This document shows positions 26,502 through 63,607 of a stretch of 64,000 nucleotides of DNA, piece after piece. The DNA is from Alphaproteobacteria bacterium (GTDB lineage Bacteria > Pseudomonadota > Alphaproteobacteria > JAUHZY01), in NCBI GenBank assembly GCA_030425825.1, contig JAUHZY010000001.1:964834-1028833 (forward strand). Reading direction: 5' to 3'. A program made the position numbers and the translations under genes. The notes below the pieces were generated by a model, which did not search any database, was not told the origin of the DNA, and worked only from the letters and a program-made list of their open reading frames with translations. The first letter of the stretch is position 1, and each line of letters opens with the position of its first letter.

Positions 26502-26670
26502 AGCCCCTCGATCAAAATCAATATTTATCAATTATATAGACACATAAAATCTCATAATGTAATTTATTTTTGATTATATACCTGGCATTTTGAATAAAAA
26601 AAACTTGCAAACATTACCTATAATTGCTCTTATTAATCAATATACACGCATTAGTATAGTGGAAAAAGGC

Positions 26671-27330
26671 ATGAAAAATAATATTATTGACTTCCAGAGT
26701 CTTACAAAAAGTGATGAAAACACAGTTATTGAACAAGCACTAAAACACGTTTTAAAAAAAACACAAAAATCGCTCCCAAAAAAAAAGGTGAAGGAGGTTT
26801 GTGCACTTACGGCGCTTCATTTTCAAAATGAAAGCCCCTTGGAAGAACAAGTTATACGTAATTTCTTCTTTACATTTCTTTCCGAGAAAATGAATGATGA
26901 AGATAATATCACCTCCTTAAACAGCATAGAAAAAGACATTCTTGTACTCTTAAACAATGCATCTATCAGCCTTCCAGCACGCAAGAAGACAATTTTCATT
27001 GCTTTAGTGATCGCTATTGCAGCCACTTTATTTATCGCACCCCATCAAGAGCCTAAAAATATTACAGCAACAGCAGATTTAGCCCCTCAGCTTACAACAA
27101 GTCAAATTAAGTCCCTTAAGAAACATGTGGATAACATTGTGTTATTGCATGCAAAATATAAAAGTGAAATTATCAGCCGCCATCGTATATGGAATGATGT
27201 CAAAAACCATATCTCGCAACATACAAACGGTAAAAAAATTAGAAGTTATAAAAACATTCCACCAGAACACTTTAAATTAGCCGAAACATTTCTTATATCC
27301 TGGCAAGAAGGTATTAAGAAAAACAGGTAA
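26671..27330 (+). CDS. Hypothetical protein with one central membrane helix
   Basis: I do not recognise this protein. From the ATG at 26671 it has 219 residues: a charged helical N-terminal half, one membrane helix at about 106-125 (TIFIALVIAIAATLFIA), and a basic helical C-terminal half, probably outside the membrane. A TTG at 26590 would add 27 residues; neither start has a strong ribosome site, so this is open. It lies 4 bases before the CPBP protease gene, and the pair forms a two-gene unit, perhaps substrate or partner and protease. Confidence 0.5.
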   Translation: MKNNIIDFQSLTKSDENTVIEQALKHVLKKTQKSLPKKKVKEVCALTALHFQNESPLEEQVIRNFFFTFLSEKMNDEDNITSLNSIEKDILVLLNNASISLPARKKTIFIALVIAIAATLFIAPHQEPKNITATADLAPQLTTSQIKSLKKHVDNIVLLHAKYKSEIISRHRIWNDVKNHISQHTNGKKIRSYKNIPPEHFKLAETFLISWQEGIKKNR

Positions 27331-27334
27331 TAGC

Positions 27335-27964
27335 GTGAAAAAAAAGATTTTATGGGCGGAATTTTTAGGGGTATTTATTCTCACCCCTGGATTACTCACA
27401 CTTGCTTCAGAGACATTACCGGTTCAACGTTTCATCTTCTCTTTTCTATGGGCCATGATGCTTTATTGCGTCCTTGTCTTTTGGAAAAATAGGGAATCTG
27501 TTTTTAACCTCCACCGTCCTATCATTTCTAGAAAAATCATCACGACATTTTTAGGACTCAGCACAGCTCTTCTTCTTTATACGTACTTTTTCGAAAATCA
27601 CTTGCTGTTTAACTTCATTAGCAACAAGCCAAAAGCATGGGCAACAGTCATGGTGCTTTATCCCCTGCTTTCTGTTTTTCCTCAAGAAATTGTTTATCGC
27701 TCTTTTTTCTTTGAACGCTATAAAACAATTTTCAAAAACACTCATGTGATGGTTTTTGTGAACAGCATCGCCTTTGGTTGGTCGCATATTGTTCTTCAAA
27801 GTTGGGTCGCTGTTCTTTTCAGCGCAGCTGGTAGTGTTTTATTTGCATATAACTATGCTAAAAATAAATCTCTATCTCTTGTGATTTTAGAACACAGTCT
27901 TTACGGGAATATGATTTTCACCCTTGGTCTTGGGTGGTATTTTTATAGTGGTCGCCTAGGATAG
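27335..27964 (+). CDS. CPBP-family intramembrane metalloprotease
   Basis: The 209 residues contain about six membrane helices and the three CPBP (CAAX/Abi) motifs: QEIVYR for EExxxR, FGWSH for FxxxH and HSLYGN for HxxxN. The first glutamate of EExxxR is replaced by Gln; the second Glu and the Arg remain. Family members include prenyl proteases, bacteriocin immunity proteins and scaffolds. It starts with GTG at 27335, four bases after the preceding unknown gene. Its stop lies one base from the convergent hisIE stop. Confidence 0.8.
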   Translation: MKKKILWAEFLGVFILTPGLLTLASETLPVQRFIFSFLWAMMLYCVLVFWKNRESVFNLHRPIISRKIITTFLGLSTALLLYTYFFENHLLFNFISNKPKAWATVMVLYPLLSVFPQEIVYRSFFFERYKTIFKNTHVMVFVNSIAFGWSHIVLQSWVAVLFSAAGSVLFAYNYAKNKSLSLVILEHSLYGNMIFTLGLGWYFYSGRLG

Positions 27965-30032: not shown

Positions 30033-30626
30033 CTAAATCTCTAAAAAATTACGCAAAATTGTTTCGCCTACTTCACCTGAACGCTCAGGATGGAATTGGC
30101 ACCCATAAAAATTGTCCCGTTTCACCATTGCTGTAAATGGCATGATATATTCTGTTTTACCAATTGTGTGCTCACTCACGGGTGCAGCATAACTGTGAAC
30201 GAAATAAGCATAAGGGTTATCATCCATCCCTTTTAAGAGGGCATTTTCTCCTTGAGTTTTAATCGTGTTCCAACCCATATGTGGTACAGCTTGACCTGTT
30301 GTTTTAGAAAATTCTTGGATACGGCCAGGAATAATATCCAAGCACTCAACATCACCCTCTTCTGAAGAGCTATAGAGCAACTGCATCCCAAGACAAATAC
30401 CAATGACTGGTTGCTTCAAAGATTTCAGGCAGCCAATCAGGTTCTTATCACGTAATATTTTCATAGCATGTGCCGCATGACCAACACCTGGCAAAATCAC
30501 TTTATCAGATGATGTGATAACATCAGGATCTTCTGTGAATTCTGGTGTGATGCCAAGACGATCTAATGCAAACAATACAGAGGAAAGATTTGCACCACCA
30601 CTATTAACAACACTAAGACGCGGCAC
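30033..30626 (-). CDS. hisH: Imidazole glycerol phosphate synthase glutaminase subunit HisH
   Basis: HisH splits glutamine and channels ammonia to HisF. The triad is visible: the cysteine in IGICLGMQLL, and the His and Glu in CQFHPERSGEVG. I prefer the GTG at 30626, 9 bases after an AGGGG, which gives 197 residues starting PRLSVVNSGGANLSSVL after the initiator. The frame stays open to 30662, but the earlier residues have no family likeness. With this start it overlaps the hisC-hisB gene by 14 bases. Confidence 0.95.
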   Translation of the reverse strand: MPRLSVVNSGGANLSSVLFALDRLGITPEFTEDPDVITSSDKVILPGVGHAAHAMKILRDKNLIGCLKSLKQPVIGICLGMQLLYSSSEEGDVECLDIIPGRIQEFSKTTGQAVPHMGWNTIKTQGENALLKGMDDNPYAYFVHSYAAPVSEHTIGKTEYIMPFTAMVKRDNFYGCQFHPERSGEVGETILRNFLEI

Positions 30627-32310
30627 GATCAAAAACCCCTTTGGTAGAAGCCAGCTCATCACCGCCCGTTAAAGCAATCGCTTGACCCAAAGATTTTGCA
30701 ACAGCTTTGAAACAGCCTTCAACCATATGATGATCGTTTTCACCCTTCAAAATATCAACATGAATAGCGGCCCCCAAATAATCAGAAAGTGTTTTGAAGA
30801 AATGAGGCACCATTTCAGTCGCAAAGTTTGTACCGTCTGAATCAATATAAGCGTGCTTGAATTCTCCTTTGAATGAGCACACAGCACGACCACTTAGGTC
30901 AACAGCACCATGCACCAAAGCTTCATCCATTGCCAGTTTGATCTCACCCGATCCATAGCGATTAATACCACGCTTATCACCCAGCGCCTCCGCCAGCGCC
31001 TGACCAATAACGATCGCACAGTCCTCAACTGTATGATGGTCTCCTGTCTCTAAATCTCCTGTACAAGTCAGCGTTAACGCAAAGCCGCCATGCTTTGAAA
31101 GCTGCTGTAACATGTGATCAAAAAAACCAATCCCTGTAGATATATTATGCCCTTGCTGATCAAGGTTCACACATGCAACAATTTCTGTTTCTTTCGACTT
31201 GCGTGCAGCCGTTGCTTCGCGGTCTTGAGATTGAGGAGCATCTAGAACACCCAATGCCATTAACAGCAAGTCATTTTGTTCTTTCAAACCAACACTCATA
31301 CGGATCGTGTTATCGGCAGAATATTTTCGCACAATAATTCCACTTTTTTTCAGTTTGTTATAAAAAGCATCACGGTTTTTTGTTTCAAATAAAATGAAGT
31401 TTGTTTCACTTGGATAAACTTTTAAAACTTCATCGCTTTGCAACAGAAGCTCTTCCAAGCGCTTTCTTTCTTCAATAAGAATTCTGTTTTTTTGGTCCAA
31501 AATTGCGATTGCCTTAGGGTTCAATGCCTCTTTAACAGCATCAATCGTTGTCGAAGGAATCGGGTAAGGTGCAATCGCACGACGCAACAAATCAATTAAA
31601 TCTGGATGACCCAACATAACACCACAACGCGCACCTGCCAGACCATAGTATTTTGACATTGTTCGCATCACCGCCATGTGAGGGAACTCATCCAAACGTT
31701 TTGCCCAAGAAGGCTGGTCAACAAACTCGGCATATGCCTCATCAACAATTATAATGGCTTTATCTGCTGCGGCTTTAATAACAGCTTCAATATCTTCTGT
31801 TTTCATCACATTGCCACTGGGACTGTTGGGAGAACATAAGAAAACAATTTTGGGATTCTCTGTATTAATTTTTTCAATAATTGTTTTAACATCTAATTGA
31901 AAGCCATCTTCCAAAAGTGGCACAGCGATCGTCTCACACCCTTGCAATTCGGCAGATATTTTGTAGCATCCAAATGTAGGTGGTGTTGCTAATATTTTAT
32001 CAACACCTTCACGACAAAACACGCGACATAATAAATCAATACCTTGATCACTTCCTAGCGTAACAAGAATTGATGCTGCATCAACACCATAAAGCCGAGA
32101 AAAAATCGGCAACAAAGCACCAGCGCGTGGATCAGGATAACGATTCAAGTTCGTTTTTCTATTCGTCATAATGTCCGCTGCAGAAATTGGGTTCTCATTT
32201 GCATCGAGTAAAATTAAATCGCTGTCTGCACCGATTTGACTGCGCGCTGAATCATACGGTTTTAGCTTCAAAACAGCAGGACGAGCCAGTTTTTCAAAAA
32301 TCTCTAACAT
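30613..32310 (-). CDS. hisC-hisB: Fused HisC-HisB: histidinol-phosphate aminotransferase / imidazoleglycerol-phosphate dehydratase
   Basis: One frame of 565 residues holds two enzymes. Residues 1 to about 357 are HisC (LLDANENPIS, RYPDPRAGAL, SPNSPSGNVM, DEAYAEF, PLP-lysine K220 in MRTMSKYYGLAG, RMSVG). A short linker (near DAPQSQDREATA) leads to HisB dehydratase, about 364-550, with ISTGIGFFDHMLQQLSKHGG, GDHHTVEDCAIVIGQAL, MDEALVHGAVDLSGR and GENDHHMVEGCFKA. Both sets of catalytic residues look intact. HisB is usually separate or fused to a histidinol phosphatase, so this partner is unusual. The ATG at 32310 lies 10 bases after GGAGA and overlaps the hisN-like gene by 7 bases. Confidence 0.95.
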   Translation of the reverse strand: MLEIFEKLARPAVLKLKPYDSARSQIGADSDLILLDANENPISAADIMTNRKTNLNRYPDPRAGALLPIFSRLYGVDAASILVTLGSDQGIDLLCRVFCREGVDKILATPPTFGCYKISAELQGCETIAVPLLEDGFQLDVKTIIEKINTENPKIVFLCSPNSPSGNVMKTEDIEAVIKAAADKAIIIVDEAYAEFVDQPSWAKRLDEFPHMAVMRTMSKYYGLAGARCGVMLGHPDLIDLLRRAIAPYPIPSTTIDAVKEALNPKAIAILDQKNRILIEERKRLEELLLQSDEVLKVYPSETNFILFETKNRDAFYNKLKKSGIIVRKYSADNTIRMSVGLKEQNDLLLMALGVLDAPQSQDREATAARKSKETEIVACVNLDQQGHNISTGIGFFDHMLQQLSKHGGFALTLTCTGDLETGDHHTVEDCAIVIGQALAEALGDKRGINRYGSGEIKLAMDEALVHGAVDLSGRAVCSFKGEFKHAYIDSDGTNFATEMVPHFFKTLSDYLGAAIHVDILKGENDHHMVEGCFKAVAKSLGQAIALTGGDELASTKGVFDRAAS

Positions 32311-33104
32311 GCTTTTATAATCTCCAATGCTTGTGTGTGAAGGTCTTGGTTTCGTGCACACAAAACTTCAACCGTATAATCTTCTAATTTTGTTTCATCC
32401 CAGTTTTCTTTTATCGGGTCTACTGTCACCAATGACTTTCCCTGCCAATCAGTCATCATACCGCCATAAGCCTGAATAATCGGCAAAATCGCGACCCAGT
32501 CCCAATATCGTAAATCTGCGGCCAAATCTAAGTCTAAGCGCCTTTTTGCAATATTAAAATAGTTATATGCGTCGCCGCCATAAAGTGTTGTTGCCACGGG
32601 TCGTGTTAATTTTTCATAAGCTTCAACTTGACGCTTATCTATGAACATTTCTGGTGTTGTGACAGAAAGAATCGATTGTGCCAATGACTTGTTTTCATCA
32701 GAAGATGAGAACGCATCATCTGCACTGGCAATAATTATATCGCCTAAAACAGGCTGTCCCATACCGCCAACCGTTGGAACACCATTAATCGTAACGCCAA
32801 TTAAATTCATAAATGTTGGACGACCAGACTTAAATGCCGTTGAACCATCAATCCCATCCAAAACAAACGTTACATTTGATGATCCTTTTGTTATGCCTGT
32901 TTCTTCACCTATAATATTTGCATCAGGCATCATTTTGGCAATCACATCACGGCTTGCTTCTTCGGCGGCTTTATCGGCAATCGTAAAAATTGGGGATGAC
33001 GCATCTTTCAAAACAACAGCAAGGTCTTGCGTATAATACTCAGCTGTTATTTCTCCTGCTGCCTTCAAACACTTTTCAACAATTTTTTTTAATTCATTTT
33101 TCAT
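32304..33104 (-). CDS. hisN: Histidinol-phosphate phosphatase, inositol-monophosphatase type (HisN-like)
   Basis: This 266-residue phosphatase has the inositol-monophosphatase fold. The metal site is NIIGEETGI followed by VLDGIDGSTAF, with Gly-Ile where inositol phosphatases have Pro-Ile or Pro-Leu. RYWDWVAILPIIQAYGG is the second site. HisN-type enzymes of this superfamily remove phosphate from histidinol phosphate (step 8). Its place inside the his operon, and the lack of a HAD-type phosphatase domain on HisB, support that role. It overlaps hisD by 11 bases. Confidence 0.88.
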   Translation of the reverse strand: MKNELKKIVEKCLKAAGEITAEYYTQDLAVVLKDASSPIFTIADKAAEEASRDVIAKMMPDANIIGEETGITKGSSNVTFVLDGIDGSTAFKSGRPTFMNLIGVTINGVPTVGGMGQPVLGDIIIASADDAFSSSDENKSLAQSILSVTTPEMFIDKRQVEAYEKLTRPVATTLYGGDAYNYFNIAKRRLDLDLAADLRYWDWVAILPIIQAYGGMMTDWQGKSLVTVDPIKENWDETKLEDYTVEVLCARNQDLHTQALEIIKAC

Positions 33105-36074: not shown

Positions 36075-37340
36075 ATGAAAATTCTTATAACTGGTTCTGG
36101 TGGGCGCGAGCATGCCTTGGCATGGAAAATAAAACAGTCAAAACAAGTCACAGAAATTCACTGCTTGCCAGGAAACGCTGGTATTGAAGAAATTGCCACA
36201 TGCGCCCCAATTGGTATGATGGAATTTGATAAAATCATAGCTTATGCCAAAGAACACAATATCGACTTGGTCAATGTCGCCAGTGATGACCCTTTAGTTG
36301 GTGGCCTGGTTGATCAATTAACAGAAAATGGCATTGCCGCTTTTGGTCCCAACAAAGCTGCTGCACAACTTGAAGGATCAAAGAAGTTTACCAAAGAGAT
36401 TTGTGATCAATATAATATTCCAACAGCTGCATATAAAGTATTTACAGATTTTGAAGAAGCGAAAACCTATCTAGAAAACACATCATACCCAACGGTTATC
36501 AAAGCAGACGGACTTGCCGCAGGAAAAGGCGCCATTATTGTTGAAAATGAAGTTGAAGCCGTCAAAACATTAAATGAAATGATGTCCAATGCAAAATTTG
36601 GCAGCGCAGGAAACACTGTTGTTATCGAAGATTTTCTGACAGGTGAAGAAGCCAGCTTCTTCTTTCTTTGTGATGGTGAAACTGCTTTGCCATTGGGCAC
36701 CGCACAAGATCATAAGCGTGCTTATGATGGTGACAAAGGGCCAAACACAGGCGGTATGGGTGCGTACAGCCCTGCACCCATTTTGTCAGACGCCCTTCAG
36801 CAAGAAGCCATTGAAAAAATTATCAAGCCAACTCTACAGGCCATGAAAGATATGGGCCACCCTTTCAAAGGAATTTTATATGCAGGCTTGATGCTAACAG
36901 AAAAAGGACCATTCTTAATTGAATATAACGTACGCTTTGGCGACCCTGAGGCACAAGTCATCTTGCCGCGCCTTAAAAATGACTTTGTTGACTTAATGCT
37001 TAAAACAAACGCAGGTGCGTTAAGCAACACAGCTCTTGAATGGGATGATCGCGCTGCATTGACTGTAATTTATGCATCAAAAGGATATCCAGACTCTTAT
37101 GAGAAAGGCAGTGAGGTCGTTATTCCTGAGAGCCCAGATGATAAAACACTCATTTTCCAAGCAAGCACAAAAAAGCAAGATGGAAAGCTTGTTAACGGAG
37201 GGGGAAGAACGCTAGCGATCACAGCCTTTGGTGATACAATCAAAGCCGCCCAAGAAAATGCATACACAGCGACTGATAAAATCAACTGGGATGGTGGGTT
37301 CTATCGACGCGACATTGGATGGCGCGCCGTCAAAGGTTAA
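36075..37340 (+). CDS. purD: Phosphoribosylamine-glycine ligase PurD
   Basis: PurD makes glycinamide ribonucleotide in purine synthesis. The 421-residue ATP-grasp enzyme begins MKILITGSGGREHALAWKI. It has KADGLAAGKGAIIV, EDFLTGEEASFFFLCDG, AQDHKRAYDGDKGPNTGGMG, LIEYNVRFGDPEAQVILPRL and the C-terminal GRTLAITAFG. I chose the ATG at 36075, preceded by GAGGG; the 18 codons upstream lie over the divergent small gene and have no family likeness. The stop shares TTAA (37337-37340) with the convergent 998-residue gene. Confidence 0.97.
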   Translation: MKILITGSGGREHALAWKIKQSKQVTEIHCLPGNAGIEEIATCAPIGMMEFDKIIAYAKEHNIDLVNVASDDPLVGGLVDQLTENGIAAFGPNKAAAQLEGSKKFTKEICDQYNIPTAAYKVFTDFEEAKTYLENTSYPTVIKADGLAAGKGAIIVENEVEAVKTLNEMMSNAKFGSAGNTVVIEDFLTGEEASFFFLCDGETALPLGTAQDHKRAYDGDKGPNTGGMGAYSPAPILSDALQQEAIEKIIKPTLQAMKDMGHPFKGILYAGLMLTEKGPFLIEYNVRFGDPEAQVILPRLKNDFVDLMLKTNAGALSNTALEWDDRAALTVIYASKGYPDSYEKGSEVVIPESPDDKTLIFQASTKKQDGKLVNGGGRTLAITAFGDTIKAAQENAYTATDKINWDGGFYRRDIGWRAVKG

Positions 37341-40333
37341 ACCGTCTTGCTCGTTCTGTGACCGTTGTGACCACCTTTATTTGTCCACTGCTTGTGAAAA
37401 GCTTTCCCCTTTTTGCCGAATTCTTGTGATAAAGCCTCATATGTTTTGGCTGATGCATTGTTTCGACGACCATTGGCAACTTTCTTTTTATCCAGCTTAG
37501 GCTCTGTAAAGTCAGAAGGTTTACGTGCTGTCCAAACGCTTAAATCCGTAACATCCTCATCTTTCACATAATCCGTAAAGTTAACAGTATCTGTTGCCGC
37601 TGTATTCATCGAATCAGCAGGTGTCGTCACAGAATCAGGATGCGTTGCTGTTGAGTCAGAAGGTGTAACCGTTGAGTCAGAAGGTGTAACTGTCGAGTCA
37701 GAAGGTGTAACCGTTGAGTCAGAAGGTGTAACTGTCGAGTCAGAAGGTGTAACCGTTGAGTCAGAAGGTGTAACTGTCGAGTCAGAAGGTGTAACCGTTG
37801 AGTCGTTGGGTACAATCGTAGAACTGTTTTGCGAAGAAACTGGCGCTGGCGCATTTGTAATCACTTTTCTGTTCGCCAACATCTTGTCTAGAGATTCTAG
37901 CGGCTTACCATAAAAACCATTATCGTCCTTATAAAAGCTTTGCTCACCAATTAATGGTACCAAAAGCCTCATATTTGCCATAACAATTTTCTCTTGTGCA
38001 ATGACCTCATCCAGGTTAACACCCGCCTTTAAGGTTTTCTGGTCGCTGTTGTAATATTTTGCCTTAATTGCACGAATTGGCCTGTTAATATCAATCTCAA
38101 TTTGCTGACGCAAAGCTGTAACGTCAATATTTGCTTGTCCGTTTTTCAACTGGTCCTGAACACTTTTAATAACAACAGGTAATTGCGTTGATACAGGATT
38201 TGTAACCACCGGATTCGTGGGAGTCGGGTTTGTAGGAGTCGGGCTTGTAGGAGTCGGGCTTGTAGGCGTTACAACTGGCGGCTTTACCGATGAGGTATCA
38301 GTTTTCGTTGTATCAACCACTTGCTCTGTTGAATCTTTGTCAGAGCCGCCTACGCCGCCTGAAAAAATCTTCGTCTTACTTGTCAAATAGAAAAGTGATA
38401 CTGCCACACCAAGGCCCACAACAAGCTTAAGAATACCTTTACCTGAAATTTTCTTTCTATTCCCAGATCGGCGTGTGTTTTGCTGTTCTGAATTATTCTC
38501 TTGGTTATTCTGTTGGTTATTCTCTTCGCGAGGCTCTGTTGACCCGTCAGCAGTTTGTGGGTGAACCTGTGCGACGCCTGAAGGAACAGTTGATTTTTTG
38601 GATAAGAACTTCGGCGTGAGGCGCTTAAGTAGTTTTTTCAAAGAAAACTTTTTCTTAACCTCTTCTTGCTCAGCAGTATTTTCCTGCGTGTCGTTTTCAC
38701 GAGATGTCTCTGCTTCAGGATCTTGACTCGCACCTTCTTGATTTTGCTCTGTATTTTGTGCCGCACTTTCTTGTGCATGCTGAGCAACAATCTGCTGATA
38801 TTCAGGTGTTTTCTTAATTTTTTGCTTCAAAACAGCCTGATCGAGACCGAAAAGGCTTCCTAACTTAGAATAAGCAAGACGCTCCCAAAATCCTTTGGCA
38901 GGGAAACGCTCTTTCAAATTATCTGTATTATCAGCTACATAAGATGAATCCGAGAAAAATGATTGGGCAATATCTGCATTCTCACCTTGAACTTCTGCTA
39001 CAGAAACCTCTGGTGATACTTGTGAATCTTGCACTTCTTCATCGTCACCTCTTGATTGGTCAGAAGAGTTTTCAGAGACCTCATTTGCAACATGCTGTTG
39101 ATACGAGGAAGATGCCTCAATTGCTTTTTTCAAAGCTGCTTTGCGCTTCTTACCAGCAAACATTTTGCCAAGAGCTGTCCCTAGCAAGCCTGAAACAGGG
39201 AAAAACTTTGAAAGCTCTGCACCATGTGCCTCAAGGTAAGCAGCCTTGTCTGATGCATTATGATATCCTGCAATCAGATCTTCTTTTCGCTGTTGTGCTT
39301 CGGCTTCACTCTGGCCTGTCGATTCTTGCTCTTGAGAAGAAGACGCAGGAACATGCCCCATCACACCCTCATAAGCACTTAACACACCAGCGTTATATGC
39401 CATCATCATACCGAATGCATTTTGATCATCATGAGCATCTGAAAATTCAACTTTCTTATCGGCTATTAGCTGTAAACGCTCCCACAAGTCCTTCGATCCT
39501 TCTGGCAGCTCACCAGCAATAGCCTGAACTGTAATTGCCAATCTGCGACCTTGTTCCTGGAAGTTTCTGGATTTCTCCGAGCTGACATTTATAAACCTCT
39601 CCGCCCAAAAGTCTTGAGTGTAAACATCTTTTTCTTTATATTCATCACCTGCAGGAAGGGCATCCTGCATGGCTTTGAAAGCCGCTTCTAGGCGGTTTCT
39701 TTGGCCCTCGTTCAGGCCAACATTCGTGCTCTTGATAAAGTCTTGATAAAACCCTGTTCTTTGGATTGCTGTTTCCAGTCTCTTGGCGACAAGACTACGG
39801 CTTGCCATGAAACCGTCTTTCACATTGAAATGCTTTTTCAATTCATCCATGTGGCTTTTGATATAATCACGTGAAGACCCGGCATTATAATAAGCCTCTA
39901 CCAGTCCATATTTCTCAGCAGCCAACTCTTCATCCGTTTGCTGCTGGACTTCTGAACGCTCTTCGGCCTCTAGTGCTTTACTCATTTCTTCTTGGAATTT
40001 TTCAAAAACTGAAGGGGCGTTTTCGATTGGCTCAATTTCAAAAATAACTTCTCTAATTTCCTCTACAGCATCATGAAGAGGTTTAATTTGATCATGCAGA
40101 CCCTTTTCTTGGGCAATATCTTGAATTCTGTGACTCAAAGGGTTCAGGAATTTATGCGCGAAATCACGAGCGTTTTCCGCACCGTTCTCACCACTAAAAC
40201 GTTCCTTCCAAAAACCCACCTTGCTATGATTTTCTTCCATCAAACCATATTGATATTCCCCTCCACGAGGCATAGCAGTCGACAAATTGTAATATAGTGA
40301 CTTCAGCTCTTGCTTTTCTTGGCTTGTAAGCAT
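37337..40333 (-). CDS. 998-residue repeat protein: A-B-A-B-B helical repeats, one membrane helix, periplasmic Thr/Pro stalk
   Basis: I do not recognise this family. Two A repeats (about 5-75 and 209-275) share a pattern with PAGDEY or PRGGEY, FWKERF or FWAERF, and a late I-Q-x-I-A. Three B repeats (about 139-204, 350-418, 451-520) share YxNASxxxY, LKKxFP and a closing xxYQxxI. A Gln/Glu/Asn-rich stretch (520-620) and basic RRSGNRKK precede a single helix at 634-651. Positive charges on its N side predict N-in, C-out. Beyond lie a Thr/Pro-rich segment (675-715), a globular part (716-825), seven SDSTVTP-type heptads (844-893) and a basic tail ending GHNGHRTSKTV. The start has GGGGA 7 bases upstream and a strong promoter. 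Confidence 0.85.
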   Translation of the reverse strand: MLTSQEKQELKSLYYNLSTAMPRGGEYQYGLMEENHSKVGFWKERFSGENGAENARDFAHKFLNPLSHRIQDIAQEKGLHDQIKPLHDAVEEIREVIFEIEPIENAPSVFEKFQEEMSKALEAEERSEVQQQTDEELAAEKYGLVEAYYNAGSSRDYIKSHMDELKKHFNVKDGFMASRSLVAKRLETAIQRTGFYQDFIKSTNVGLNEGQRNRLEAAFKAMQDALPAGDEYKEKDVYTQDFWAERFINVSSEKSRNFQEQGRRLAITVQAIAGELPEGSKDLWERLQLIADKKVEFSDAHDDQNAFGMMMAYNAGVLSAYEGVMGHVPASSSQEQESTGQSEAEAQQRKEDLIAGYHNASDKAAYLEAHGAELSKFFPVSGLLGTALGKMFAGKKRKAALKKAIEASSSYQQHVANEVSENSSDQSRGDDEEVQDSQVSPEVSVAEVQGENADIAQSFFSDSSYVADNTDNLKERFPAKGFWERLAYSKLGSLFGLDQAVLKQKIKKTPEYQQIVAQHAQESAAQNTEQNQEGASQDPEAETSRENDTQENTAEQEEVKKKFSLKKLLKRLTPKFLSKKSTVPSGVAQVHPQTADGSTEPREENNQQNNQENNSEQQNTRRSGNRKKISGKGILKLVVGLGVAVSLFYLTSKTKIFSGGVGGSDKDSTEQVVDTTKTDTSSVKPPVVTPTSPTPTSPTPTNPTPTNPVVTNPVSTQLPVVIKSVQDQLKNGQANIDVTALRQQIEIDINRPIRAIKAKYYNSDQKTLKAGVNLDEVIAQEKIVMANMRLLVPLIGEQSFYKDDNGFYGKPLESLDKMLANRKVITNAPAPVSSQNSSTIVPNDSTVTPSDSTVTPSDSTVTPSDSTVTPSDSTVTPSDSTVTPSDSTVTPSDSTATHPDSVTTPADSMNTAATDTVNFTDYVKDEDVTDLSVWTARKPSDFTEPKLDKKKVANGRRNNASAKTYEALSQEFGKKGKAFHKQWTNKGGHNGHRTSKTV
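37650..37817 (-). repeat. Tandem 21-base repeat, seven full copies plus one diverged
   Basis: Copies start at 37650, 37671, 37692, 37713, 37734, 37755 and 37776; an eighth at 37797 has drifted. Plus-strand unit: GT(T/C)GAGTCAGAAGGTGTAAC(C/T). From the second copy on, variants alternate with a 42-base period (gttgag...aact, then gtcgag...aacc), so later copies arose by doubling of a two-unit block. Each unit encodes one SDSTVTP heptad. Copy number probably varies between strains. Confidence 0.95.
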
Positions 40334-40378: not shown

Positions 40379-40407
40379 ATTATATAACGATATGTTTCCA
40401 ATATCAA
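40379..40407 (-). promoter_or_regulatory. Strong sigma70-like promoter of the 998-residue protein gene
   Basis: On the minus strand there is TTGATA at 40407-40402, a 17-base spacer, and a perfect TATAAT at 40384-40379. Transcription would start near 40372, giving a leader of about 39 bases with a GGGGA ribosome site. It lies in the 82-base gap after pyrC, so this gene is probably a separate, well-expressed unit. Confidence 0.65.
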
Positions 40408-41768: not shown

Positions 41769-42938
41769 TTAAGCAGACACCTTATCTTTGGCTGTGACTT
41801 TCTTTGCAAACATCATTTTTGCAAATGAAACTGGATTCTTGTCCTTACGCCAGGCCTGAATTTCGAGGTCTCTATCATAGTTCTCAAGACCTTTCATGGA
41901 ATGATTTATGCCAATAAGGTTTTCAGGCTTTGTATTGGCAATCTGATAATCATTGGCGGCACTAGAAAACATGGCACCATAAACAACTGTTGCAAGATCA
42001 CCTTGCTCAATTCCAGAGGCGGCTATATCAAGGCCTGAATATGCCATTGCGTAAAGCTGAACATCCAAAATTGTTACGCCAACTGAAATTGCACTAAGGT
42101 TGATTTTGTCAAAAGAATATGAATCTATTTTTTCTTGAAGAGAGTGATTTTTTTCTTGAAGACCGTCTACTTTTGCAATCAATTTATCAAGCTTTGAGGA
42201 GTGCTTTTGGTTATCGTTAATGTTTTGCCCAGTTAAACCATGTTTTGCAATATATCTACTTATTGTTTCTTCATATTTCTCAATTTTTTCTAGATTTGTT
42301 CCTACACTCATCAAATTGAAATGCTTTTTTGTTTGAAGAAGCCACAGTCGCGGGCGAACGTATGATCCAACAAGGCTTTTTTTGAACCAGTTATTTAAAT
42401 TATTTAACTTTTCTTCCTTCGTTTTTCCACTTTTCTTACCTGGCTTCGTAAGAAACTTATCTATCGGCTCACGAAAACTAAGAAATAGAGCGCCTGCAAA
42501 TAAGGATCCACCTGTAAACGTCAAAGAAAGACCACCTGCCTGGCCTGTTAAAAGCTTCACCATTCCCATGCCCGTAAAAGCGACACCTTTTGCTGCAAGG
42601 CCTGTGTATGAGATCAAGTCGAAATTCTTTTTTCGCCACTTTAGACCGGGCGAATCTACTTCTTTAATATGCACTTTATGATCTTTTCCATCAGCCAGCC
42701 TGATGTGAGCGCCATTATCATATTGCCCAAGAATAATATTTATCCACTCGAACAAAGCACCTGGGTCACCTCGAAACAGTGATATAACACCTGCAACACC
42801 AAGCTTTGTATCACCACGCAACCATCGATATCCCGTTCTTCTAGCGGGATGATCTGCTATTTTCTTTCCATATATTTTTTCAACAATCGGCTGAAAGAAA
42901 TACCGATCATATGCCTTACCTATTCTGCGCAAAACCAT
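41769..42938 (-). CDS. Hypothetical membrane-associated protein with coiled coil, 389 aa
   Basis: I do not recognise this protein. It has a basic N-terminus (VLRRIGKAYDRYFFQPI) and no clear signal peptide. Two hydrophobic Gly-rich segments lie at about 115-160 (GLAAKGVAFTGMGMVKLL, GGSLFAGALFLSF). A heptad-like coiled coil follows near 250-275 (LDKLIAKVDGLQEKNHSLQE), then another hydrophobic stretch (LSAISVGVTILDVQLYAMAY). It may be a polytopic or pore-like inner-membrane protein. It lies between folE and pyrC with its own weak promoter candidate. Confidence 0.6.
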   Translation of the reverse strand: MVLRRIGKAYDRYFFQPIVEKIYGKKIADHPARRTGYRWLRGDTKLGVAGVISLFRGDPGALFEWINIILGQYDNGAHIRLADGKDHKVHIKEVDSPGLKWRKKNFDLISYTGLAAKGVAFTGMGMVKLLTGQAGGLSLTFTGGSLFAGALFLSFREPIDKFLTKPGKKSGKTKEEKLNNLNNWFKKSLVGSYVRPRLWLLQTKKHFNLMSVGTNLEKIEKYEETISRYIAKHGLTGQNINDNQKHSSKLDKLIAKVDGLQEKNHSLQEKIDSYSFDKINLSAISVGVTILDVQLYAMAYSGLDIAASGIEQGDLATVVYGAMFSSAANDYQIANTKPENLIGINHSMKGLENYDRDLEIQAWRKDKNPVSFAKMMFAKKVTAKDKVSA

Positions 42939-59590: not shown

Positions 59591-59619
59591 TTGACAAATG
59601 TTTCCTTTTAAGATATAAT
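59591..59619 (+). promoter_or_regulatory. Perfect consensus sigma70 promoter (TTGACA-N17-TATAAT)
   Basis: TTGACA at 59591-59596, a spacer of exactly 17 bases, and TATAAT at 59614-59619. All twelve consensus bases match. Transcription would start near 59626, 25 bases before the ATG of the orphan gene at 59651. Nothing else in the window matches this well. Confidence 0.8.
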
Positions 59620-59650
59620 AAGGGAGAAATTTGAAAAGGGGAGTTATTTA

Positions 59651-60427
59651 ATGAGCGTCGTGCAACAAGAACTGAGGTCTCAAGGAGGAAGTGGCAGAAT
59701 CCCTTTTTGGAAAGCCCCAATTCGTGCGATTGTCGGCTTCAAGCAGCGCCTCTTCTATAATAAAGTTTTTTTTGGTGATAGCAGCAACGGTGAGCCATCA
59801 AAAAATAGCATTGCCGGAATCACCGGAAGACTCTTTGATTTTGCACGTAAACTTGCACACAATGCACCAAACGGCTGGGATCGCTATCTAAGGCCACTTA
59901 GAAAAGTTTGGGGACATCTATATAGAAATTCAGGTATGATTTTTGGCGCAACAGCGCTATGTGTTACAGCAGCACCTGTCGGCCTTTTAGGTGTTGCCGT
60001 TGCTTTTATTGCAGCCTCTCAAATCGCCCTCAGTGTAAAAAAAGTTGACTGGGCAAACAGAGCAAGACGCGACTGGGGAATTAAAATCGGACGAATATTT
60101 AAAAATCAAGAAAAAGACGGCAATATCATTTTTAATGCAATAGAACGCGCGTTTTACAAGCATATCGGACATGCTGATGAAGCATCTGCTGTTTCGGCAG
60201 GCGTTAATATTCAACAAGAGTTTAGTAACTTTAAAAGAGAATCTGGCGTCGATGGAATTACAAAAATGATTGCGCCTGTCGTGAACGGAACAGCATTAGC
60301 ACCTCTATTTCAACTTCTTTTTGACATTAACAAAGAGAGAACGTTTGTTCCAAGAACGCCCCAGGCTTCACTTGTAACGCAAGAGTACTATGGTGGCGTA
60401 AGAACAAACTCTCCTTACGGTGGATAA
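59651..60427 (+). CDS. Orphan membrane protein, 258 aa, highly expressed by promoter
   Basis: I do not recognise this protein. A basic amphipathic N-terminal third (FWKAPIRAIVGFKQRLFYNK) leads to one hydrophobic hairpin at about 95-128 (GMIFGATALCVTAAPVGLLG, then VAVAFIAASQIALSV). A charged, helical C-terminal half follows, ending VRTNSPYGG. There is no cleavable signal peptide. The ATG has a GGGGAG site 7 bases upstream and a perfect consensus promoter. It stands alone between ccmB and the convergent mnhG (5-base gap). Its style recalls the 389-residue protein at 41769, but I cannot show homology. Confidence 0.68.
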   Translation: MSVVQQELRSQGGSGRIPFWKAPIRAIVGFKQRLFYNKVFFGDSSNGEPSKNSIAGITGRLFDFARKLAHNAPNGWDRYLRPLRKVWGHLYRNSGMIFGATALCVTAAPVGLLGVAVAFIAASQIALSVKKVDWANRARRDWGIKIGRIFKNQEKDGNIIFNAIERAFYKHIGHADEASAVSAGVNIQQEFSNFKRESGVDGITKMIAPVVNGTALAPLFQLLFDINKERTFVPRTPQASLVTQEYYGGVRTNSPYGG

Positions 60428-63205: not shown

Positions 63206-63607
63206 TCAATGCTCCTCCATGACAAAAATTGTTTTCAAGCAACCTGAAACGACAATACAAAAAACGCCAAGGTCAAACAATACAGGCGTACCTAGCGGAA
63301 AGAAACTGAGAGATTTATCCCACATCCCCGTCATGAAATCGGCGCCTTGCAACAAAGGGATCATTCCACTGGAAACAACAAAAACAAAACCAAAAAACAT
63401 CAAAAGATTCAAATTAATAGGCAGCGCTTTATGCGCCTGCGCGACACCCAAAACAAGATTTAAAAGTGCAAAGCCCAACGTCATCATAAGGCCTGCGATA
63501 AAACCGCCGCCTGGCAAGTTATGCCCTCTGTATAAAAAGGTCAAAGAAAGCAAAACAAAAATCCAAAAAATAAACCTGACAAGGTAAGTGATAATCACAG
63601 AGTTCAT
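63206..63607 (-). CDS. mnhB: Na+/H+ antiporter subunit MnhB/MrpB
   Basis: The 133 residues have four helices and the MnhB signature FLYRGHNLPGGGFIAGLMMT. The start codon shares one base with the mnhA stop (TAATG at 63609-63605). MnhA and MnhB are therefore separate genes, not the A-B fusion seen in several Gram-negative Mrp systems. Confidence 0.95.
   Translation of the reverse strand: MNSVIITYLVRFIFWIFVLLSLTFLYRGHNLPGGGFIAGLMMTLGFALLNLVLGVAQAHKALPINLNLLMFFGFVFVVSSGMIPLLQGADFMTGMWDKSLSFFPLGTPVLFDLGVFCIVVSGCLKTIFVMEEH

What the first reader, a model, noticed from the sequence alone, without database searches (positions are those of the whole stretch)
37337..40333. Large unknown protein: cytoplasmic A-B-A-B-B repeats, one helix, periplasmic stalk
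Two families of internal helical repeats (A about 70 residues, B about 70 residues) match nothing I know. The single helix with a positive inside and a Thr/Pro and SDSTVTP stalk outside suggest a protein that spans the periplasm or touches the cell wall, with a basic tip. A near-consensus promoter predicts strong expression. This is my best candidate for an undescribed system.
Basis: partly seen in the sequence, partly recalled or inferred. Interest (0 to 1): 0.72.

Follow-up and report, generated by a model that had tools for sequence, protein, structure and literature searches.

The report
Orphan membrane protein with helical repeats
This is a real gene for a large one-helix membrane protein, apparently found only in this deep-branching bacterium, whose inner part is built from two new repeated helical domains and whose outer part looks like a stalked anchor; it probably ties something inside the cell to the cell envelope, but that function is inferred.

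Summary
ORF 37337-40333 (-) encodes 998 aa with two families of significant internal repeats, order A-B-A-B-B; A is about 125 residues, not 70. A single helix (about 633-652) has a positive cytoplasmic side. Outside lie a Thr/Pro linker, a compact domain of about 105 aa, SDSTVTP repeats and a basic tail. No relative was found in Pfam, NCBIfam, PHROGs, PADLOC, PDB, plasmids, phages, viral contigs, GTDB contigs (8-mer scan, low sensitivity), 385 class genomes or 398 phylum genomes. The own genome holds no paralogue, and no other genome of its order is held. AlphaFold models (pLDDT about 75) match no PDB fold. The strong-promoter claim is supported: TTGATA-N17-TATAAT is one of only six TTGAYA-N17-TATAAT sites in the 1.95-Mb genome, all 31-45 bp before a start codon. 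Genes behind such promoters are mostly orphans (10 of 14 without a Pfam family, against 2 of 18 controls). The layout resembles streptococcal MapZ (N-in, one helix, pedestal, Ser-rich linker, terminal module) without homology. Best reading: a bitopic envelope tether or scaffold; ligands unknown. An orphan protein in an isolated lineage, not a demonstrated system.

The parts
40379..40407 (-). promoter TTGATA-N17-TATAAT, 45 bp before the ATG
   Evidence: 11 of 12 consensus matches; one of six TTGAYA-N17-TATAAT sites in the genome, all 31-45 bp before a start codon
37337..40333 (-). the 998-aa orphan protein
   Evidence: open frame; codon usage within the range of conserved genes
39959..40333 (-). 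repeat A1 (aa 1-125), acidic, predicted helical
   Evidence: shuffle test with A2; AlphaFold model
39719..39925 (-). repeat B1 (aa 137-205), predicted helical
   Evidence: shuffle test with B2; AlphaFold model
39359..39718 (-). repeat A2 (aa 206-325)
   Evidence: shuffle test with A1
39080..39289 (-). repeat B2 (aa 349-418)
   Evidence: shuffle tests with B1 and B3
38774..38986 (-). repeat B3 (aa 450-520)
   Evidence: shuffle test with B2
38378..38437 (-). single transmembrane helix (aa 633-652), positive residues before it
   Evidence: hydropathy 1.95 over 19 residues; net +6 in 618-634, 0 in 653-670
38189..38356 (-). Thr/Pro-rich linker (aa 660-715)
   Evidence: composition; 15-bp tandem repeat in DNA
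37874..38188 (-). compact extracytoplasmic domain (aa 716-820), the possible pedestal
   Evidence: AlphaFold pLDDT 74.7, pTM 0.64, helices plus a hairpin; no Foldseek match in PDB or BFVD
37640..37807 (-). SDSTVTP repeats (aa 843-898)
   Evidence: 21/42-bp tandem repeat, 99% matches
37340..37516 (-). basic C-terminal tail (aa 940-998)
   Evidence: net +9

Best explanation
A lineage-specific, strongly promoted bitopic (N-in, C-out) envelope tether or scaffold. Inferred mechanism: the cytoplasmic A-B-A-B-B helical modules bind one or more cytoplasmic partners, with duplicated modules giving avidity. The helix fixes the protein in the inner membrane. The Thr/Pro linker, folded pedestal and SDSTVTP linker then carry a basic tip to an acidic envelope target (peptidoglycan, LPS or an outer-membrane protein), so that inner partners are placed at, or mechanically coupled to, a site in the wall. 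Shown: ORF, repeats, linkers, one hydrophobic helix with charge bias, promoter, no relative in the collections searched. Predicted: helical and pedestal folds, topology. Inferred only: binding on either side, and the role.
For: Repeats; one helix with positive-inside bias, linkers, basic tail; compact outer domain, all-helical A-B unit; no enzyme, transporter, toxin or regulator domain in any family library; exceptional promoter, as expected for an abundant structural protein. The outer layout of linker, helical domain, Ser/Thr-rich linker and C-terminal tip parallels MapZ, whose outer part is a helical pedestal, a Ser-rich linker and a peptidoglycan-binding C-terminal module (PMC4931243).
Against: No homologue, partner gene or conserved residue patch points to any ligand. 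The C-terminal tail is short and may be disordered. The models have only moderate confidence, and the A-B pTM is 0.50. Many bitopic proteins share this topology without being tethers.
Confidence: 0.4

Rival explanations
1. A transmembrane signalling protein: the outer domain senses a wall or surface state and the cytoplasmic helical repeats sequester a regulator (as in RsgI-type anti-sigma factors, which share the N-in, one-helix, linker, outside-module layout).
For: Same general topology; compact outer domain between flexible linkers.
Against: No anti-sigma or kinase domain; no sigma factor or two-component gene beside it (read by eye); the cytoplasmic part is large and repetitive, unlike the short RsgI N-terminal domain (from memory).
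Confidence: 0.15
2. A protein used toward other organisms (surface display, attachment or a host interface), one of a strongly promoted set of lineage-specific proteins.
For: It shares near-perfect promoters with a set that is mostly orphan (10 of 14 without a Pfam family against 2 of 18 controls); stalk-like Ser/Thr/Pro sequence is common in surface proteins (general knowledge).
Against: No signal peptide, surface anchor or secretion signal was recognised; about 620 residues are predicted to stay inside; lifestyle of the organism unknown.
Confidence: 0.12
3. Not a functional protein: a decaying or spurious reading frame.
For: No relatives; extensive low-complexity sequence.
Against: Intact 998-codon frame with normal codon usage, strong promoter, tight packing against purD, diverged but recognisable duplicated domains, compact domain model.
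Confidence: 0.05

Closest known systems
MapZ (streptococcal division-site beacon; PMC4931243, PMC7055233)
   Same: N-terminal cytoplasmic part, one helix, flexible linker, helical outer module, Ser-rich linker, C-terminal module
   Different: No MapZ Pfam match; Gram-negative host; cytoplasmic part of about 620 aa with A-B-A-B-B repeats; the C-terminal part is a basic tail without a recognised fold; peptidoglycan binding not shown
HubP/FimV polar landmarks (PMC8789113)
   Same: One helix linking an envelope part to a large repetitive cytoplasmic part
   Different: HubP has a periplasmic LysM domain, acidic cytosolic repeats and a C-terminal TPR region; none detected here, and here the N-terminus is predicted inside
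RsgI-type anti-sigma factors (from memory)
   Same: N-in, one helix, low-complexity linker, outside module
   Different: No anti-sigma domain match or recognised sigma-factor neighbour; large repetitive cytoplasmic part

Membership tests
MapZ | sequence match to the MapZ family domains | tested here: not met
   no MapZ model among Pfam matches for the whole protein (E up to 5) or its pieces (E up to 10)
MapZ | N-in/C-out with one transmembrane helix | tested here: met
   one hydrophobic segment and charge bias; a sequence prediction only
MapZ | helical outer module plus Ser-rich linker before a C-terminal module | tested here: inconclusive
   compact domain and SDSTVTP linker present; the terminal part is a basic tail with no recognised fold
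MapZ | binding to peptidoglycan and to FtsZ, mid-cell ring | not testable with these tools
   needs experiments
HubP/FimV | periplasmic LysM domain and cytoplasmic TPR region | tested here: not met
   no LysM or TPR match in Pfam
RsgI-type anti-sigma factors | N-terminal anti-sigma domain and a neighbouring sigma factor | tested here: not met
   no family match; no gene recognisable as a sigma factor in the window ORF list (read by eye)

The most novel reading that the evidence does not exclude
The protein is the first example of an undescribed envelope scaffold, convergent in layout with MapZ, and one member of a coordinately strong-promoter set of lineage-specific proteins that together build a structure or interface peculiar to this alphaproteobacterial order.
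Probability: 0.2. Interest if true: 0.65.

Novelty: new variant of a known kind. Interest (0 to 1): 0.38.

Why it matters
It supplies two repeat domains and one outer domain with no match in the family and structure libraries searched, in a genome that stands alone in its order among those held. It also gives a cheap rule for this lineage: the handful of near-perfect promoters point mostly at orphan genes, hence at proteins the cell probably makes in quantity but that nobody has described. If the tether role is right, it would be another independent invention of the pedestal-and-linker wall anchor known from MapZ.

Tried and rejected
Weak hits were examined and dismissed: PDB and Pfam antifreeze hits and the class hits of the C-terminal half fall on low-complexity SDST/Pro stretches; class hits of the cytoplasmic half at E 0.02-0.1 are expected by chance over 385 genomes, at least one of them on a frame antisense to a real gene; the own-genome hit at E = 0.009 is a transglutaminase-like protein. 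Winged-helix Foldseek hits to the outer domain have TM below 0.3. Talin, catenin and spectrin hits to the A-B model have E above 1. The pyrC neighbour was used to look for a syntenic ortholog: best pyrC identity 61%, no close relative, and nothing like the ORF in any fetched locus. The orphan neighbour 41769-42938 and three other orphans show no convincing sequence relation to it.

Full report
Setting. The window lies in a 1.95-Mb, 99% complete genome that is the only one of its order among the genomes held. Its pyrC protein is at best 61% identical to named alphaproteobacteria (Kiloniella and other Rhodospirillales, uncultured lineages), and the pyrC tree does not place it. The genome has PopZ and MipZ, as expected for an alphaproteobacterium.

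The gene. ORF 37337-40333 (-), 998 codons, has ordinary codon usage for this genome. It follows pyrC in the same direction after 82 bp and meets purD tail to tail with a 4-bp overlap. A TTGATA-N17-TATAAT promoter ends 45 bp before the ATG. Genome-wide, TTGAYA-N17-TATAAT occurs six times (reversed-pattern control 0), and every site is 31-45 bp before a start codon. Relaxed to TTGNNA there are 16 sites (control 14), of which 14 have a gene start 24-62 bp downstream. Ten of those 14 proteins have no Pfam family above its cut-off, against 2 of 18 randomly chosen genes with weaker promoters (Fisher p = 0.0008, or 0.004 without the two window genes that prompted the test). One of the four proteins counted as having a family (133 aa at 63206-63607, MnhB-like) was assigned by eye. 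This is a post-hoc test on small numbers, but it supports strong expression and puts the protein in a class of lineage-specific, strongly promoted genes.

The protein. Shuffle tests show that A1 (1-125) and A2 (206-325), and B1 (137-205), B2 (349-418) and B3 (450-520), are true repeats. A is acidic, B neutral to slightly basic, and the modules are joined by acidic Q/E/S-rich linkers; there is no cysteine. One helix at about 633-652 has +6 on its N-terminal side and 0 on the other, with no other strongly hydrophobic stretch, so N-in/C-out is the natural topology. Outside follow a Thr/Pro linker, a domain that AlphaFold folds even without an alignment (pLDDT 74.7, pTM 0.64; helices and a hairpin), seven SDSTVTP-type units encoded by a 42-bp repeat with 99% matches, and a basic tail. 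The A1-B1 unit, folded with the other copies as its alignment, is all helical (pLDDT 75.5, pTM 0.50).

Relatives. None found: Pfam, NCBIfam, PHROGs, PADLOC; PDB by sequence and profile and by fold (outer domain also against BFVD); plasmids and phages by tblastn; IMG/VR; GTDB contigs (exact 8-mers only, so insensitive to diverged orthologs); 385 class genomes with the cytoplasmic half, 337 with the C-terminal half, 398 phylum genomes with the A-B profile; own genome, no paralogue. AlphaFold DB, UniRef and metagenome proteins were not available, so 'orphan' means orphan in these collections.

Mechanism. The layout suggests a tether: cytoplasmic repeats as a multivalent binding platform, one helix, then a linker, pedestal, linker and basic tip reaching into the envelope. 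The outer half repeats the plan of MapZ, where a helical module and a Ser-rich linker act as a pedestal for a peptidoglycan-binding C-terminal module (PMC4931243). HubP is a functional parallel with a different arrangement (PMC8789113). Neither is a homologue on the tests made. Binding partners, location and process remain inference; a signalling role and a role toward other organisms are the main rivals.

Verdict. A real, well-described observation; an orphan protein with domains unmatched in the libraries searched, in an isolated lineage. The word 'system' is not earned. Interest is moderate, raised a little by the finding that it belongs to a strongly promoted orphan set.

Noticed in passing
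59591-60427 (+): A perfect TTGACA-N17-TATAAT promoter stands 31 bp before a 258-aa orphan with one hydrophobic segment and no family above cut-off.
   Followed up: partly
L142, L143, L144, L168, L173, L174, L175, L177 (own genome): Further proteins of 90-489 aa without a Pfam family above cut-off stand behind near-perfect sigma-70 promoters; one (L174) has a weak AAA_33 match below cut-off.
   Followed up: partly
41769-42938 (-): 389-aa orphan upstream of pyrC with hydrophobic and coiled-coil stretches; only marginal hits in the class (E about 0.001), which fall on MotA/TolQ-like or coiled-coil regions.
   Followed up: partly
30613-32361 (-): Apparent fusion of histidinol-phosphate aminotransferase (HisC) and imidazoleglycerol-phosphate dehydratase (HisB), inside a his gene cluster; read by eye.
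   Followed up: no
26590-27964 (+): 246-aa protein with a central hydrophobic segment and no family above cut-off, followed by a membrane protein that reads like a CPBP-type intramembrane protease (the latter by eye only).
   Followed up: no
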